DNA from: Planomonospora sp. ID67723
GTDB taxonomy: Bacteria; Actinomycetota; Actinomycetes; Streptosporangiales; Streptosporangiaceae
NCBI RefSeq assembly: GCF_015711605.1
Contig: NZ_JABTEZ010000002.1
Coordinates: forward strand, 1,550,001-1,614,000
Length of the DNA stretch: 64,000 nucleotides
Direction: 5' to 3'
How positions within the stretch are numbered: position 1 is the first letter of the stretch; each line of letters opens with the position of its first letter. The position numbers were made by a program, and so were the translations under genes. This document shows, one piece after another, positions 52,223-55,348 of the stretch. The notes below the pieces were generated by a model. That model did no database searches. It saw only the letters and a program-made list of their open reading frames with translations, and had not been told where the DNA came from.

Positions 52223-53854
52223 ATGGCACGTGGCGGAACTGGCCCCATGAGCGGCATGCCACCCGGCGTGCGGCCCCTGACCGTCGGGGACCCGGTCATC
52301 ATCGGCCGTTATCTCCTGCTCGGCCGTCTCGGCACGGGCGGCATGGGTGTGGTCTACCTGGCCGAGCATCCCCAGGGCGGGGTCGTGGCGCTCAAGACGC
52401 CGCATCCGGTACACCTCAACGATCCCACGCTGCGTGCCCGTTTCGCGGAGGAAGTGGAGTTCTCCCGGCGGGTGACGCCGTTCTGCACCGCAGCGGTGGT
52501 GGAGGACGGCACCGACAGGGAGCGGCCCTACCTGGTCTCGGAGTACATCCCCGGTCCCGCGCTCTCCCAGGTGGTCGCCGCGCGCGGCCCGCTCACCCCG
52601 GACCTGGCCTACGGCGTTGCCCTCGGCGTGGCGGGCGCGCTGACGGCGGTGCACGAGGCCGGGCTGGTCCACCGGGACCTGAAGCCGGGCAACGTGCTGC
52701 TCTCGGAGACCGGTCCCCGGCTGATCGACTTCGGGATCGCCAGGGACGTGGACACCCTCGCCGCGCACACCCAGGCCGGGCAGGTGATGGGGAGTCCGGG
52801 ATGGGTCGCCCCGGAGCGGCTCACCGGCGGTCCCGCCCTGCCCGCCTCGGACGTCTTCTCCTGGGGCTGCCTGATCGCCTACGCGGCCACCGGCCACCAC
52901 CCGTTCGGCGCGGGCGAGCCCGACGTGCTGACCCGGCGGATCCTGGTCGAGCCGCCACGCCTGTCCGCGGTGCCCGAGCTGCTGCGCCCGGCGGTGGAGG
53001 CGGCGCTGGCCAGGGAGCCCGCACGCCGGCCCAGGGCGGCGGACCTGCTCGGGGCGCTGCTCGCCGCCGGCGGCATCGGCGACCCGTGGGACCTGCGCGA
53101 GGCGGTCGCCGAGGTGCTGGCCGAGATCTGGACGCCGGTGCCGTACCCGCCCGGAGGCGGTCGTCTCCGGCTGGCCTCCGGCGGATCGGCCGCCCCGGCG
53201 GACCGCCCGGAGCGGCCGGTCTCGGACCGGCCCCCGGCCCGGCGGTCCCGCCGGGCCGAGCCGCGCCGGGGGGCGCACCTGCCGCAGGCGAGCTTCGCGG
53301 CGCTGGCCACCGTGTCGATGGTGGCGTTCACCGTGGTCGCCGCGGGAAACGGCGGTCCCGGAGCGAGCCGCGGCGGGGTGCCCGAGCACGTCCCGATGGT
53401 GATCCCCGCCGATGGGACGACCGCGGGCGCGGCCTCCCGGGGGACCCGGCCCCCAGGAGGCCGCGTGGGGAGCCCGCCTCCGGTCAGCCCTTCCACGATC
53501 ATGGTCACCGCCACCCGGACCGTCCCGCTGCCCGGGACGACCGACCGGTTGCAGGAGCCCTCACCGGAGAATCCGCAGGGCTCGCCCGACGATCCGGGCG
53601 CCGGTGCACCTGACGATCCCGGAGAGCCGCAGACCTGCGCGGACGTGAACGCCAAGGGCAAGGGCAAGGGGAAGGGCAGGGGCGGGGCGAAGGGCTGCCC
53701 GACCGCGACGACCGGTCCCAAGCCCTCCTTCACCCAGATCCCGCAGACCGGTGACGGAGAGAGCCCGTCACCGACGCCGACGGCGAGTACGCCGGGGACG
53801 CCGGCAGCCACGGTGTCCCCGACGCCCAGCCCCTCGATCCAGATCGGAGGCTGA
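52223..53854 (+). CDS. Transmembrane Ser/Thr protein kinase (PknB type, non-PASTA)
   Basis: 543 aa. Gly loop GRLGTGGMGVVY (34-45), K58, HRDLKPGN with D152, DFG with D169, and GSPGWVAPER activation segment. Kinase domain about 30-285; one TM helix about 350-372 (SFAALATVSMVAFTVVAAG). The outer region is Pro/Thr-rich, with a lysine/glycine run KGKGKGKGRGGAKG near 480 flanked by Cys residues, and no PASTA repeats. It likely senses a wall or envelope ligand. ATG 52247 is an alternative start. The 248 bases upstream are AT-richer and hold the promoter. Confidence 0.9.
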   Translation: MARGGTGPMSGMPPGVRPLTVGDPVIIGRYLLLGRLGTGGMGVVYLAEHPQGGVVALKTPHPVHLNDPTLRARFAEEVEFSRRVTPFCTAAVVEDGTDRERPYLVSEYIPGPALSQVVAARGPLTPDLAYGVALGVAGALTAVHEAGLVHRDLKPGNVLLSETGPRLIDFGIARDVDTLAAHTQAGQVMGSPGWVAPERLTGGPALPASDVFSWGCLIAYAATGHHPFGAGEPDVLTRRILVEPPRLSAVPELLRPAVEAALAREPARRPRAADLLGALLAAGGIGDPWDLREAVAEVLAEIWTPVPYPPGGGRLRLASGGSAAPADRPERPVSDRPPARRSRRAEPRRGAHLPQASFAALATVSMVAFTVVAAGNGGPGASRGGVPEHVPMVIPADGTTAGAASRGTRPPGGRVGSPPPVSPSTIMVTATRTVPLPGTTDRLQEPSPENPQGSPDDPGAGAPDDPGEPQTCADVNAKGKGKGKGRGGAKGCPTATTGPKPSFTQIPQTGDGESPSPTPTASTPGTPAATVSPTPSPSIQIGG

Positions 53855-53908
53855 GGCACCGGAATAAAACGGGATGAACGTCATGGATCTTGTCGATACC
53901 CTGGCCGC

Positions 53909-54643
53909 ATGGCGACCAAGCTGAACCAGATCCTCGCCGTGGAGAAGGGCGTCAAGTCCGACACCCAACGCAAGGTGACCGACGCGTACCACACGATCCA
54001 GAAGAACGCCCTGCTCTCGGGCATCTCGCGGACCTATCAGCCGATCGACGACGACGGGGAGCACCTCCCGGCGGAGTCGACGCGGGTGCAGGTCCAGGCC
54101 GAGGATCTGCTCAAGCAGGTGGGAGCCGCGCTGACCCGGCTGTTCGACGTGACCGCCACCAAGGACTGGGCCAACCGCACCGCGCACGCCGACGTGAAGG
54201 TCGACGGCGTCGTCCTGCTGGAGCAGGTGCCGGTCACCTACCTGCTCTTCCTGGAGAAGCAGCTGGTCGACCTGCACACCTTCATCTCCAAACTGCCGGT
54301 GCTGGACGCGGCCGAGACCTGGGCGCTGGACGCCTCGACCGACTGCTGGCGGACCGAGCCGGTCAAGACGACCCGGACCAAACGGGTCCCGCGCAACCAC
54401 GTCAAGGCCGAGGCGACCGACAAGCACCCCGCCCAGGTCGAGGTCTACCACGAGGACATCGTCATCGGTTTCTGGACCAAGGTCGTCTTCTCCGGCGCCG
54501 TGCCCCGCAAGCGGGTCAACGAGCTGCTGGAGCGGGTGAGCAAGCTCCAGGACGCCGTGAAGTTCGCCCGCGAGGAGGCCAACGGCACCGAGGTCGCCGA
54601 CCAGCGGATCGGAGACAAGATCTTTGACTACCTCCTGAGGTAG
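53909..54643 (+). CDS. Conserved-looking 244-aa protein of unknown function next to two Y-RNA-like genes
   Basis: 244 aa, MATKLNQILAVEKGVKSD at the start. Mixed alpha/beta, many Lys/Asp/Glu, with TATKDWANRTAHADVKVDG, VTYLLFLEKQLVDLHTFI and VEVYHEDIVIGFWTKVVFSG. No signal peptide or membrane segment, so it is cytosolic. I do not recognise a domain with certainty; it resembles a small actinobacterial DUF family. A C-terminal coiled region (about 200-244) may oligomerise. Its stop codon lies in a perfect hairpin, and the structured RNAs start about 40 bases downstream, so it may bind or process them. Confidence 0.75.
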   Translation: MATKLNQILAVEKGVKSDTQRKVTDAYHTIQKNALLSGISRTYQPIDDDGEHLPAESTRVQVQAEDLLKQVGAALTRLFDVTATKDWANRTAHADVKVDGVVLLEQVPVTYLLFLEKQLVDLHTFISKLPVLDAAETWALDASTDCWRTEPVKTTRTKRVPRNHVKAEATDKHPAQVEVYHEDIVIGFWTKVVFSGAVPRKRVNELLERVSKLQDAVKFAREEANGTEVADQRIGDKIFDYLLR

Positions 54644-54645
54644 TC
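54626..54645 (+). other. Perfect hairpin over the stop codon of the 244-aa gene
   Basis: GACTACCTC and GAGGTAGTC (9 bp) are separated by CT and enclose the TAG stop. In the transcript this hairpin could act as a processing site separating the mRNA from the downstream structured RNAs, or as a weak terminator. Confidence 0.55.
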
Positions 54646-54685
54646 TCTGCAGACTCCCCGTGGGAGCGCGGGGACGCGCGAGAGC

Positions 54686-54829
54686 GCGAAAGCTGAAACT
54701 GAAAGATCAGACTGACACGCGGCATCGGTGGGGGTTCGAGTCCCTCTCCCGGCACTTCCACGCCGGGATGGCCCAACAGGCAGAGGCGGCCGCTCAAGCT
54801 CAGACTATCGCTCCAGATTCAGCATTCGC
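54686..54829 (+). ncRNA. Y-RNA-like / permuted tRNA-like RNA, copy A
   Basis: A tRNA-like module in permuted order. The T-arm (54730-54746, GGGGG-TTCGAGT-CCCTC) and acceptor 3' strand TCCCGGC (54747-54753) come first; an 8-base linker follows; then acceptor 5' strand GCCGGGA (54762-54768), TG and a D-arm (54771-54787, GCC ... GGC with AGG in the loop). GCGGC 54719-54723 pairs with GCCGC 54789-54793 like an anticodon stem. Outside, leader and trailer form a long stem: CTGA/TCAG, AG/CT, GAT/ATC with C54708 bulged, then CTG/CAG, GCTGAA/TTCAGC and GCGAA/TTCGC separated by A-A mismatches. This is the layout of bacterial Y RNAs. Ends are estimates. Confidence 0.72.
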
Positions 54830-54835
54830 CGCCGA

Positions 54836-54972
54836 GCGCCGGATCGACCGAGGGCAGGCGAAGATCGTCGGGTGTGGGTTCGAGTCCCACTGGACGCTCC
54901 ACGTGCGTCCGTAGCTTAACGGCAGAGCACGACATCATCACGGATGACCGGCCCTCTTAAACGTGCCGGCGC
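54836..54972 (+). ncRNA. Y-RNA-like / permuted tRNA-like RNA, copy B
   Basis: Same permuted order as copy A but different sequence. T-arm 54874-54890 (GTGGG-TTCGAGT-CCCAC), acceptor strand TGGACGC (54891-54897), linker TCCACGT, acceptor strand GCGTCCG (54905-54911, one G-T pair), TA and a textbook D-arm 54914-54928 (GCTT-AACGGCA-GAGC). The closing helix is GTCG 54867-54870 with CGAC 54930-54933, then C54866 bulged, then GAT 54863-54865 with ATC 54934-54936, as in copy A. Further out GAGGGC 54850-54855 pairs with GCCCTC 54951-54956 and GCGCCGG 54836-54842 with CCGGCGC 54966-54972. No workable anticodon loop can be built, which favours a Y RNA over a functional tRNA. Confidence 0.72.
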
Positions 54973-54992
54973 CGCGACATGGCGGCACAGAC

Positions 54993-55025
54993 GGCCCCCG
55001 GGGAATGGACACTTCCCCGGGGGCC
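54993..55025. terminator. Bidirectional terminator after the RNA pair
   Basis: GGCCCCCGGGGAA pairs perfectly with TTCCCCGGGGGCC (13 bp, seven-base loop). It ends the RNA transcript and, on the other strand, the HU gene. Confidence 0.85.
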
Positions 55026-55060
55026 ACCGCCTTTCCGGCGTAGGCGGGCCGGGAGCCGGG

Positions 55061-55348
55061 TCAGTCCTTCTTGCGCTGGCGGATCAGTCCCATGAAGCCC
55101 GGGCTCGGCTTGAACTTCGCGGTCCAGGTCTCGGCGATCTCCAGGGGCTCGCCGGTCTGCGGGTTGCGCCCGGTGCGGGCGGGCTTGTGCACGATCTCGA
55201 AGGAGCCGAAGCCGGGGATCGCGACCTTGTCCTCGCTCGCGACGGCGTGCTGGATGGTGTCCAGGATCGCGTCCAGGGCGGCGGCGGTCTGCCGCCGGGT
55301 GAGGCCCGCCTCCGCCGCGGCCTTCTCGATCAGCTCGCGCTTGTTCAT
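55061..55348 (-). CDS. hup: HU-family DNA-binding protein
   Basis: 95 aa from MNKRELIEKAAAEAG. The DNA-bending arm region IPGFGSFEIVHKPARTGRNPQTGEP and the C-terminal TAKFKPSPGFMGLI are standard for HU; no Lys/Ala-rich tail of the HupS type is present. It binds DNA as a dimer and organises the nucleoid. An upstream extension to 55384 is unlikely. Confidence 0.93.
   Translation of the reverse strand: MNKRELIEKAAAEAGLTRRQTAAALDAILDTIQHAVASEDKVAIPGFGSFEIVHKPARTGRNPQTGEPLEIAETWTAKFKPSPGFMGLIRQRKKD

What the first reader, a model, noticed from the sequence alone, without database searches (positions are those of the whole stretch)
54686..54972. Two tandem circularly permuted tRNA-like RNAs, probably Y RNAs, with no Ro60 gene beside them
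In each copy a T-arm with TTCGAGT loop and acceptor 3' strand precedes a short linker, the matching acceptor 5' strand and a D-arm. The acceptor strands pair 7/7 (A: TCCCGGC with GCCGGGA; B: TGGACGC with GCGTCCG, one wobble), only in this permuted order; mixing halves between copies fails. Both are closed by a leader/trailer helix with GAT, a bulged C, then a stem. Bacterial Y RNAs (YrlA) carry a tRNA-mimic module at the end of a Ro60-binding stem. The two copies differ in sequence yet keep the fold, which argues for selection. No TROVE/Ro60 (rsr) gene is visible in the 64 kb.
Basis: partly seen in the sequence, partly recalled or inferred. Interest (0 to 1): 0.93.

Follow-up and report, generated by a model that had tools for sequence, protein, structure and literature searches.

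The report
Protein-linked RNA with twin tRNA mimics
Behind a gene for a protein of unknown function lies a structured RNA that usually carries two inside-out copies of half a transfer RNA; protein and RNA occur together in soil bacteria and large phages, which points to a protein-RNA machine that resembles, but has not been shown to be, the known Ro60/Y-RNA system.

Summary
In detail: two circularly permuted tRNA-like units (T-arm, 7/7 acceptor, short linker, D-arm) lie at 54730-54928, the only two found by a strict search of the window. The fold is conserved: in domain II 34 of 38 pairs show two-sided changes; 93% of cells pair against 39-46% when slid. A covariance model finds full-length copies (59 bits or more) in the same 69 of 150 genomes of one genus (probably Streptomyces) that carry DUF7873, and in the same 6 of 296 genomes of the phylum. 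Phages of Gordonia, Arthrobacter, Rhodococcus, Pseudanabaena and Klebsiella have the gene and two units; Rhizobium and Vibrio phages one unit. A TROVE (Ro60-type) gene lies elsewhere in this genome with permuted-tRNA modules of its own upstream; TROVE and DUF7873 are not significantly associated within the genus (p = 0.19). Best reading: a DUF7873-RNA particle presenting tRNA mimics, working like a Y-RNA particle without Ro60. Binding, expression and function are untested.

The parts
53909..54643 (+). DUF7873 gene (244 aa), presumed protein partner
   Evidence: Pfam PF25283 E 7.8e-116, residues 3-243; AlphaFold2 model mean pLDDT 90.6, pTM 0.74; the RNA occurs in the same genomes in two samples
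54655..54674 (+). hairpin shortly after the stop codon (8 bp, 4-nt loop)
   Evidence: stem of 5 bp or more at this place in 64 of 73 loci; no control was made for this one
54675..54717 (+). 5' core: GCGC hairpin and hexamer repeat AAGCUGAAACUGA
   Evidence: conserved; complementarity to own 3' core above swapped partners on average
54730..54787 (+). permuted tRNA-like unit A: T-arm, acceptor 3' strand, 8-nt linker, acceptor 5' strand, D-arm
   Evidence: by eye replaced by plain hairpins in ten relatives with the core kept
54793..54830 (+). 3' core CUCAAGCUCAGACUAUCGCUCCAGAUUCAGCAUUCGCC
   Evidence: conserved
54836..54972 (+). domain II: outer stem GCGCCGG/CCGGCGC, internal loop AUCGACC/UUAAACG, stem GAGGGC/GCCCUC, closing helix, unit B
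   Evidence: 93.0% of cells paired, 34 of 38 pairs with two-sided changes; model R1 142.8 bits
54874..54928 (+). permuted tRNA-like unit B
54993..55025 (+). 3' hairpin, 13 bp with 7-nt loop, possibly a terminator without a U-tract
   Evidence: hairpin of 9 bp or more here in 67 of 73 loci against 26 of 219 control windows; the consensus scan, which needs a U-tract, found no terminator

Best explanation
A DUF7873 gene and an RNA form one cassette. In the window the RNA (about 320 nt) begins within about 30 nt of the stop codon and ends before a strong hairpin, so it is most likely cut from, or is the 3' part of, the DUF7873 transcript (inferred; in other loci the spacing is often larger). Its conserved stems and core bind DUF7873 (inferred from strict co-occurrence). 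One or two tips carry a tRNA elbow (T-loop plus D-loop GG) and a capped acceptor stem in permuted order (shown in sequence and covariation). These tips offer a tRNA-like handle to enzymes that grip the tRNA elbow, so the particle tethers such an enzyme or acts as its decoy (inferred by analogy with YrlA, whose tRNA-like domain is reported to bind PNPase and to be modified by DusA and TruB). In phages, where the cassette sometimes lies among tRNA genes, protection of phage tRNAs is a possible use (speculative).
For: Identical genome sets for RNA and DUF7873: 69 of 150 and 6 of 296; same contig and strand, 151-347 nt behind the gene in the 17 of 69 pairs that I checked. Covariation: (34 of 38 pairs, 328 two-sided cells, 0 of 500 shuffles reach this); unit A domain 11 of 19 pairs, 93.1% paired against 43.5-61.6% slid. 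T-stem and acceptor pairs helped to select the units, but outer stem, stem b, closing helix and D-stem did not, and they covary too. GG in the D-loop stretch in 83 of 84 two-unit loci for each unit, not a selection criterion there. Model R1 finds full-length matches in loci it was not built from: L098, L094, L093, L103, L007, L104 at 78 to 54 bits. DUF7873 in 73 of 50,697 phage records at E 0.01. No other conserved neighbour: the next family occurs in 12 of 80 loci. YrlA facts: passages of PMC8394870 and PMC7790460.
Against: No binding, expression or phenotype data exist here. DUF7873 is near neutral (pI 6.4) and its model gives no match at E 0.001 or better in PDB or BFVD. The RNA could act in cis on its own mRNA. 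Unit A is missing in several relatives, so two mimics are not essential. The most diverged virus loci (L096, L097, L099, L105, L106, L107, L127, L128, L129) match the model weakly or partly (21-45 bits at best). The pairing of the two core segments is supported only on average: the own partner is the best of 16 in 3 of 16 cases. The 59-bit cut was chosen after seeing the list (next match 51.8 bits, beside a TROVE gene), and some genomes searched (at least that of L051, same contig as in G161) also gave sequences to the model.
Confidence: 0.55

Rival explanations
1. Cis-acting 3' untranslated element: the structure stabilises, processes or represses the DUF7873 mRNA and has no role in trans.
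For: Same strand, close behind the stop codon: median 88 nt (80-316) from stop to the first unit found in 80 loci, leaving little room for a promoter of its own in most; promoter scan of 53700-55100 empty; no full-length match without the gene in 150 and 296 genomes.
Against: Very elaborate for a stability element. In Gordonia phage Keelan a small annotated gene and a tRNA-Thr lie between DUF7873 and the RNA (L103); in L129 and L106 the model matches lie about 0.7 kb and 1.8-2.1 kb behind the gene (41, 29 and 32 bits).
Confidence: 0.22
2. A Y RNA of the Ro60 (Rsr) protein, encoded away from rsr.
For: Same permuted module; YrlA model 31.8 bits; TROVE gene present in this genome; in the phylum sample 5 of 6 DUF7873 genomes have TROVE against 4 of 290 others, p 4e-8. 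Not every TROVE gene has a module of its own that R1 can see: of the 7 actinobacterial TROVE loci fetched without regard to this (L001, L108-L110, L124-L126), L001 has four and L108 one (33 bits); the other five have none (best 12 bits, filters off).
Against: Within one genus the association is not significant (41 of 69 with DUF7873 have TROVE, 39 of 81 without; p = 0.19), and 28 of 69 DUF7873 genomes have no TROVE match. Four of the five TROVE loci without a module lie in genomes that also lack DUF7873 (G199, G023, G344, G446; the first two, the last two), so this RNA does not stand in for it there. In 13 genomes that I picked because a module match lay on the TROVE contig, it lies 1118-1182 nt upstream on the same strand; 12 of these matches cover only the tRNA-like part, one (G327, 45.6 bits) the whole model. 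TROVE in only 2 of 20 virus records that carry DUF7873, many of them fragments.
Confidence: 0.1
3. Phage-born counter-defence decoy: the tRNA-like caps soak up host anticodon nucleases or other tRNA-targeting defences; chromosomal copies are domesticated.
For: Many phage carriers; ARAGORN tRNAs within the fetched stretch of 10 of 22 virus loci; the authors of PMC7790460 suggest that the YrlA tRNA-like domain could inhibit an anticodon nuclease (passage).
Against: No anticodon loop is mimicked: that position is a helix. 12 of the 22 virus loci show no tRNA. Chromosomal copies are frequent (69 of 150). PADLOC gives only a weak match (type II restriction enzyme model, E 0.0056).
Confidence: 0.12
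4. Permuted tRNA genes that are circularised and opened into working tRNAs, or a relative of permuted tmRNA.
For: Order of halves; linker beginning with one base and then CCA in 23 of 84 unit A and 10 of 84 unit B; weak beta_tmRNA matches in three phage loci (24-25 bits, gathering 84).
Against: No anticodon arm would result: the ends run into a covarying stem. Linkers are 9 nt or shorter in 62 of 84 unit A and 73 of 84 unit B. ARAGORN finds no tRNA or tmRNA in the window.
Confidence: 0.03

Closest known systems
YrlA / bacterial Y RNA (Rfam RF02553) with Ro60/Rsr
   Same: Permuted tRNA-like module (T-arm, capped acceptor, D-arm) at the tip of a stem broken by internal loops; encoded beside a protein gene.
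   Different: Partner gene is DUF7873, not TROVE; usually two modules in one ~320-nt RNA; other conserved stem and loop sequences; below the Rfam gathering score (31.8 and 16.3 against 69).
Circularly permuted tmRNA (e.g. Rfam RF01850)
   Same: Acceptor 3' strand precedes the 5' strand across a linker; weak matches of three phage units.
   Different: No tmRNA call by ARAGORN in the window; CCA mostly absent; two modules; linked to DUF7873.
Permuted tRNA genes (algae, archaea; recalled)
   Same: 3' half before 5' half with a short linker.
   Different: No anticodon arm; the ends are a covarying helix.
GOLLD / ROOL large ornate RNAs
   Same: Large structured RNAs of phages and bacteria, some near tRNA arrays (recalled; of PMC12286853 I saw the search listing only).
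   Different: No Rfam match at gathering scores in the window; tied to one protein family.

Membership tests
Bacterial Y RNA (YrlA, RF02553) | Permuted tRNA-like module with T-arm, acceptor and D-arm | tested here: met
Bacterial Y RNA (YrlA, RF02553) | Rfam gathering score (69 bits) | tested here: not met
   31.8 and 16.3 bits; weak test, since the best module beside TROVE in this genome also fails, at 44.4 bits
Bacterial Y RNA (YrlA, RF02553) | Gene linkage to, and co-occurrence with, Ro60/TROVE | tested here: not met
   TROVE on another contig; 28 of 69 RNA carriers have no TROVE match, p = 0.19 within the genus; but associated across the phylum, 5 of 6 against 4 of 290
Bacterial Y RNA (YrlA, RF02553) | Stem shared with Ro60-linked Y RNAs | tested here: inconclusive
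   Near TROVE genes R1 matches only positions 37-100 in 7 of 8 hits; L108 and G327 give weak whole-model matches (33 and 45.6 bits); no model of Ro60-linked stems was built
Bacterial Y RNA (YrlA, RF02553) | Binding by Ro60/Rsr | not testable with these tools
   -
Permuted tRNA gene | Joining the ends gives an anticodon stem and 7-nt loop | tested here: not met
   The ends form the closing helix and stem b, which covary
tmRNA (permuted) | tRNA-like end with CCA, and a tmRNA call | tested here: not met
   ARAGORN none in the window; CCA at the linker start in 23 of 84 and 10 of 84; a tag reading frame was not tested formally
DUF7873 (PF25283), protein part | Pfam cut-off of 27 bits over the family length | tested here: met
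   386.4 bits, residues 3-243

The most novel reading that the evidence does not exclude
DUF7873 and its RNA are a second, Ro60-independent class of ribonucleoprotein built around circularly permuted tRNA mimics, usually two per RNA, shared by phages of several bacterial phyla and by actinobacterial chromosomes, with a conserved core whose 5' segment can pair with two alternative partners.
Probability: 0.6. Interest if true: 0.85.

Novelty: new variant of a known kind. Interest (0 to 1): 0.78.

Why it matters
It would show that the permuted tRNA mimic is a portable part used with different protein partners, give a context to a protein family of unknown function, and add a new structured RNA to large phages. 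Because RNA and gene coincide in the genomes sampled and the pair is absent from about half of one genus (69 of 150 have it), gene removal in harmless soil bacteria can test directly what tRNA mimics do in bacteria, an open question for Y RNAs as well.

Tried and rejected
Tandem canonical tRNAs: model R1 also gives 43-46-bit matches in many genomes of the genus (139 of 150 have some match at E 0.01); three of three that I opened are tandem tRNA-Asn genes, so only full-length matches of 59 bits or more were counted, a cut set after seeing the list. Two separate RNAs: thought unlikely because conserved core segments are complementary across unit A and the spacing is nearly constant; not proven. 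Conserved operon: no other recurrent neighbour. Tag peptide: the core repeats read as alternating Lys/Leu codons, but by eye the codons are conserved down to the third base in GC-rich genomes, so an RNA-level constraint is likelier; no formal coding test. Fold of DUF7873: no informative match. Lak megaphage matches are not significant (E about 4-5) and I saw no RNA by eye behind one of them. Core pairing: mean duplex energy own -21.2 against swapped -16.6 kcal/mol, 0 of 20,000 permutations; after correction for G+C, 2 of 20,000; yet the own partner is the best of 16 in only 3 of 16, and L104 and L090 do poorly.

Dropped rows: of 44 domain II stretches listed, L045 was left out before alignment A3 (diverged outer stem); A3 holds the window and 42 of 103 loci, picked by me for diversity and a recognisable unit B; the most diverged phages were left out and then searched with the model. 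A4 holds the window and 34 loci picked likewise. In one search, 12 of 88 loci were skipped because only one unit was seen. In one search, L006 (the window's own copy) and L095 (same stretch as L092) were dropped as duplicates, and L005 because its fetched stretch lay on the other strand. In one search, 84 of 103 loci with two strict units were counted.

Full report
WHAT WAS CLAIMED AND WHAT IS THERE. Both are present: T-arms at 54730-54746 and 54874-54890, acceptor strands that pair 7/7 in permuted order, linkers of 8 and 7 nt, and D-arms at 54771-54787 and 54914-54928. A strict search finds these two and no other in the window on both strands, and none in 30 mononucleotide shuffles. ARAGORN finds no tRNA, Rfam at gathering scores finds nothing, and at relaxed thresholds YrlA matches unit B (31.8 bits, E 4.1e-5) and unit A (16.3 bits, E 1.2), both below the gathering score of 69.

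WHAT LIES BESIDE IT. The gene upstream on the same strand, 53909-54643, is DUF7873 (PF25283, E 7.8e-116). I fetched 80 relatives from genome contigs out of 529 found, 12 viral contigs and 11 stretches of named phages with a sound DUF7873 match. With a loose motif search over the 1,000 nt behind the gene, 103 loci gave two units in 78, one in 16, three in 7, four in 1 and none in 1; some of the extra ones are canonical tRNAs or chance. With the strict search, 149 units lie in the 700 nt behind the gene in 80 loci, against 0 in 1.65 Mb of farther flanks, both strands counted.

ONE RNA, CONSERVED FOLD. Domain II (54836-54972) consists of an outer stem, an internal loop AUCGACC/UUAAACG, a second stem, a closing helix with a bulged C, and unit B. 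In an alignment of 43 sequences, 93.0% of cells pair (38.7-46.4% when the partner is slid by 1-3 columns), 34 of 38 pairs change on both sides, and 0 of 500 shuffles reach the observed values. T-stem and acceptor were search criteria and so are biased; outer stem (92.7%), stem b (93.8%) and D-stem (98.8%) were not. The closing helix is weaker (76.2%), chiefly in its three pairs beyond the bulge. The unit A domain shows 93.1% paired (43.5-61.6% slid) and 11 of 19 pairs with two-sided changes, its closing helix again weak (40% and 76%). A GG in the D-loop stretch, part of the tRNA elbow, is present in 83 of 84 loci for each unit. Around unit A, conserved 5' and 3' core segments are complementary: own partners give -21.2 kcal/mol on average against -16.6 for swapped ones (0 of 20,000 permutations, 16 sequences; 2 of 20,000 after correction for G+C), though the own partner is the best in only 3 of 16. 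The core admits two pairings that share the same 5' segment; which one forms, or whether it switches, is open. In ten relatives unit A appears, by eye, to be replaced by a short plain hairpin while the core is kept. A hairpin of 9 bp or more follows the RNA in 67 of 73 loci (26 of 219 control windows), and one of 5 bp or more stands right after the stop codon in 64 of 73 (no control). That the two units are one molecule is inferred from this, not shown. The single-sequence fold is not striking (z = -1.87) and misfolds unit B.

STRICT PARTNERSHIP WITH DUF7873. A covariance model of domain II (R1) was run over whole genomes. In 150 genomes of the genus of G128 (unnamed; record titles of relatives suggest Streptomyces), full-length matches of 59 bits or more occur in 69 genomes; DUF7873 occurs in 69 genomes; the sets are identical. 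The cut was set after seeing the list; the next match has 51.8 bits and lies beside a TROVE gene. In the 17 pairs that I checked of 69, the RNA lies on the same contig and strand, 151-347 nt behind the gene. In 296 genomes of the phylum both occur in the same 6. Some genomes searched also gave sequences to the model. No other neighbour family recurs in more than 12 of 80 loci.

PHAGES. DUF7873 occurs in 73 of 50,697 phage records at E 0.01 or better: Vibrio 29, Gordonia 12, Rhizobium 12, Klebsiella 7, Serratia (by name) 6, Arthrobacter 3, Pseudanabaena 2, Rhodococcus 1, Microcoleus 1. Six of the 11 named phage loci opened show two units (L100-L105). L107 shows one by motif and, by eye, L127 and L128 one each; L129 and L106 have weak model matches farther downstream (41.3, 29.3 and 31.7 bits). 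Pfam confirms DUF7873 in the seven diverged phage and viral proteins tested. Model R1 finds full-length matches in loci it was not built from: L098, L094, L093, L103, L007 and L104, 78 to 54 bits; L096, L097, L099, L105, L107, L127 and L128 match weakly or in part. Weak Lak matches are not significant.

IS IT A Y RNA? A TROVE match lies on another contig of this genome (C3, E 9.0e-16, a 63-position stretch in a 613-aa frame), with four permuted-tRNA modules upstream (the best scores 44.4 bits with the Rfam YrlA model). In 13 genomes that I picked because a module match lay on the TROVE contig, the module lies 1118-1182 nt upstream of the TROVE match on the same strand; 12 of those matches cover only the tRNA-like part, one (G327, 45.6 bits) the whole model. 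Of 8 R1 matches in L001, L139 and L140, 7 cover only the tRNA-like part; ARAGORN reads one of the L140 stretches as part of a tRNA-Met. But modules are not seen beside every TROVE gene: of 7 TROVE loci fetched without regard to this, L001 has four, L108 one (33 bits, whole model), and L109, L110, L124, L125 and L126 none (best 12 bits with filters off; L109 has only 532 nt on one side). In the phylum sample TROVE and DUF7873 coincide (5 of 6 against 4 of 290; p 4e-8), but within the genus they do not significantly (41 of 69 against 39 of 81; p = 0.19), so the wide association may be shared ancestry or lifestyle. TROVE is found in 2 of 20 virus records with DUF7873 (two of the 20 carry the same DUF7873 stretch, and several are fragments), and in both a YrlA-type module lies within 1.6 kb of TROVE, about 6 and 60 kb from DUF7873. 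So two systems use the same module with different neighbours. What it works like (a Y RNA) and what it is (not shown to be one) differ.

PROTEIN. AlphaFold2 gives a confident model (pLDDT 90.6, pTM 0.74): long helices and long strands, no match at E 0.001 in PDB or BFVD (the one BFVD row with probability 1.00, a 179-aa crAss-like phage protein, has E 0.018 and rmsd 14); PDB sequence searches are empty or not significant. pI is 6.4. A weak YicC-like match (E 9e-4, below its cut-off) in the Vibrio protein is a lead only.

MECHANISM. Shown: the cassette, the fold, the elbow features. Inferred: co-transcription and processing; binding to DUF7873; presentation of tRNA mimics to an elbow-binding enzyme. 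For YrlA, PMC8394870 (passages) reports that the stem holds Rsr, the tRNA-like domain binds PNPase, and DusA and TruB modify it; PMC7790460 (passages) suggests nuclease inhibition as a possible role; PMC11472068 (passages) describes the circular permutation between Y RNA and tRNA; PMC7824862 (passages) notes TROVE proteins in a subset of jumbo phages. By analogy DUF7873 takes the place of Rsr. The rivals are a cis element, a Ro60 Y RNA, a counter-defence decoy, and a tRNA or tmRNA.

LITERATURE. No paper in the held library contains 'DUF7873', none holds 'permuted tRNA' with bacteria and actinobacteria, and the listings (capped; titles and abstract starts only) showed none that describes this RNA. 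The key Y RNA survey (Chen et al. 2014) is not held, so earlier mention there cannot be excluded.

I corrected the TROVE loci without modules, the picked nature of the 13 genomes, the weak matches of diverged phages and the limits of the core test.

Noticed in passing
L001 (G000:C3) 106-606: Four permuted tRNA-like modules in tandem upstream of the TROVE frame of the same genome; ARAGORN reads one stretch as tRNA-Glu (65-135), probably a Y RNA half.
   Followed up: partly
window 54690-54717 and 54793-54822: Hexamer pattern A-R-N-Y-U-N repeated on both sides of the core, reading as alternating Lys/Leu codons; seen from actinobacteria to phages; meaning unknown.
   Followed up: partly
window 54675-54689 with 54793-54830: The 5' core segment can pair with two different 3' segments (GAGCG/CGCUC or GCGAA/UUCGC), as in a switch or pseudoknot; both kinds of pairing appear among distant phages.
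   Followed up: partly
L007, L027, L029, L054, L065, L070, L071, L077, L080, L087: Unit A appears, by eye, replaced by a short plain hairpin while core and unit B remain.
   Followed up: partly
L127 3958-4167: Vibrio phage K479 has a permuted unit with CCA and then a canonical tRNA-Lys where unit B would be expected.
   Followed up: no
L113 and L111: Two virus records with DUF7873 also carry a TROVE gene with YrlA-type modules at a separate place.
   Followed up: partly
L136, L137, L138: Tandem tRNA-Asn genes mimic a permuted unit and give 43-46-bit false matches with such models.
   Followed up: yes
L110, L124, L125, L126: TROVE genes without any module that R1 can detect nearby; their Y RNA, if any, is of another kind or place.
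   Followed up: no
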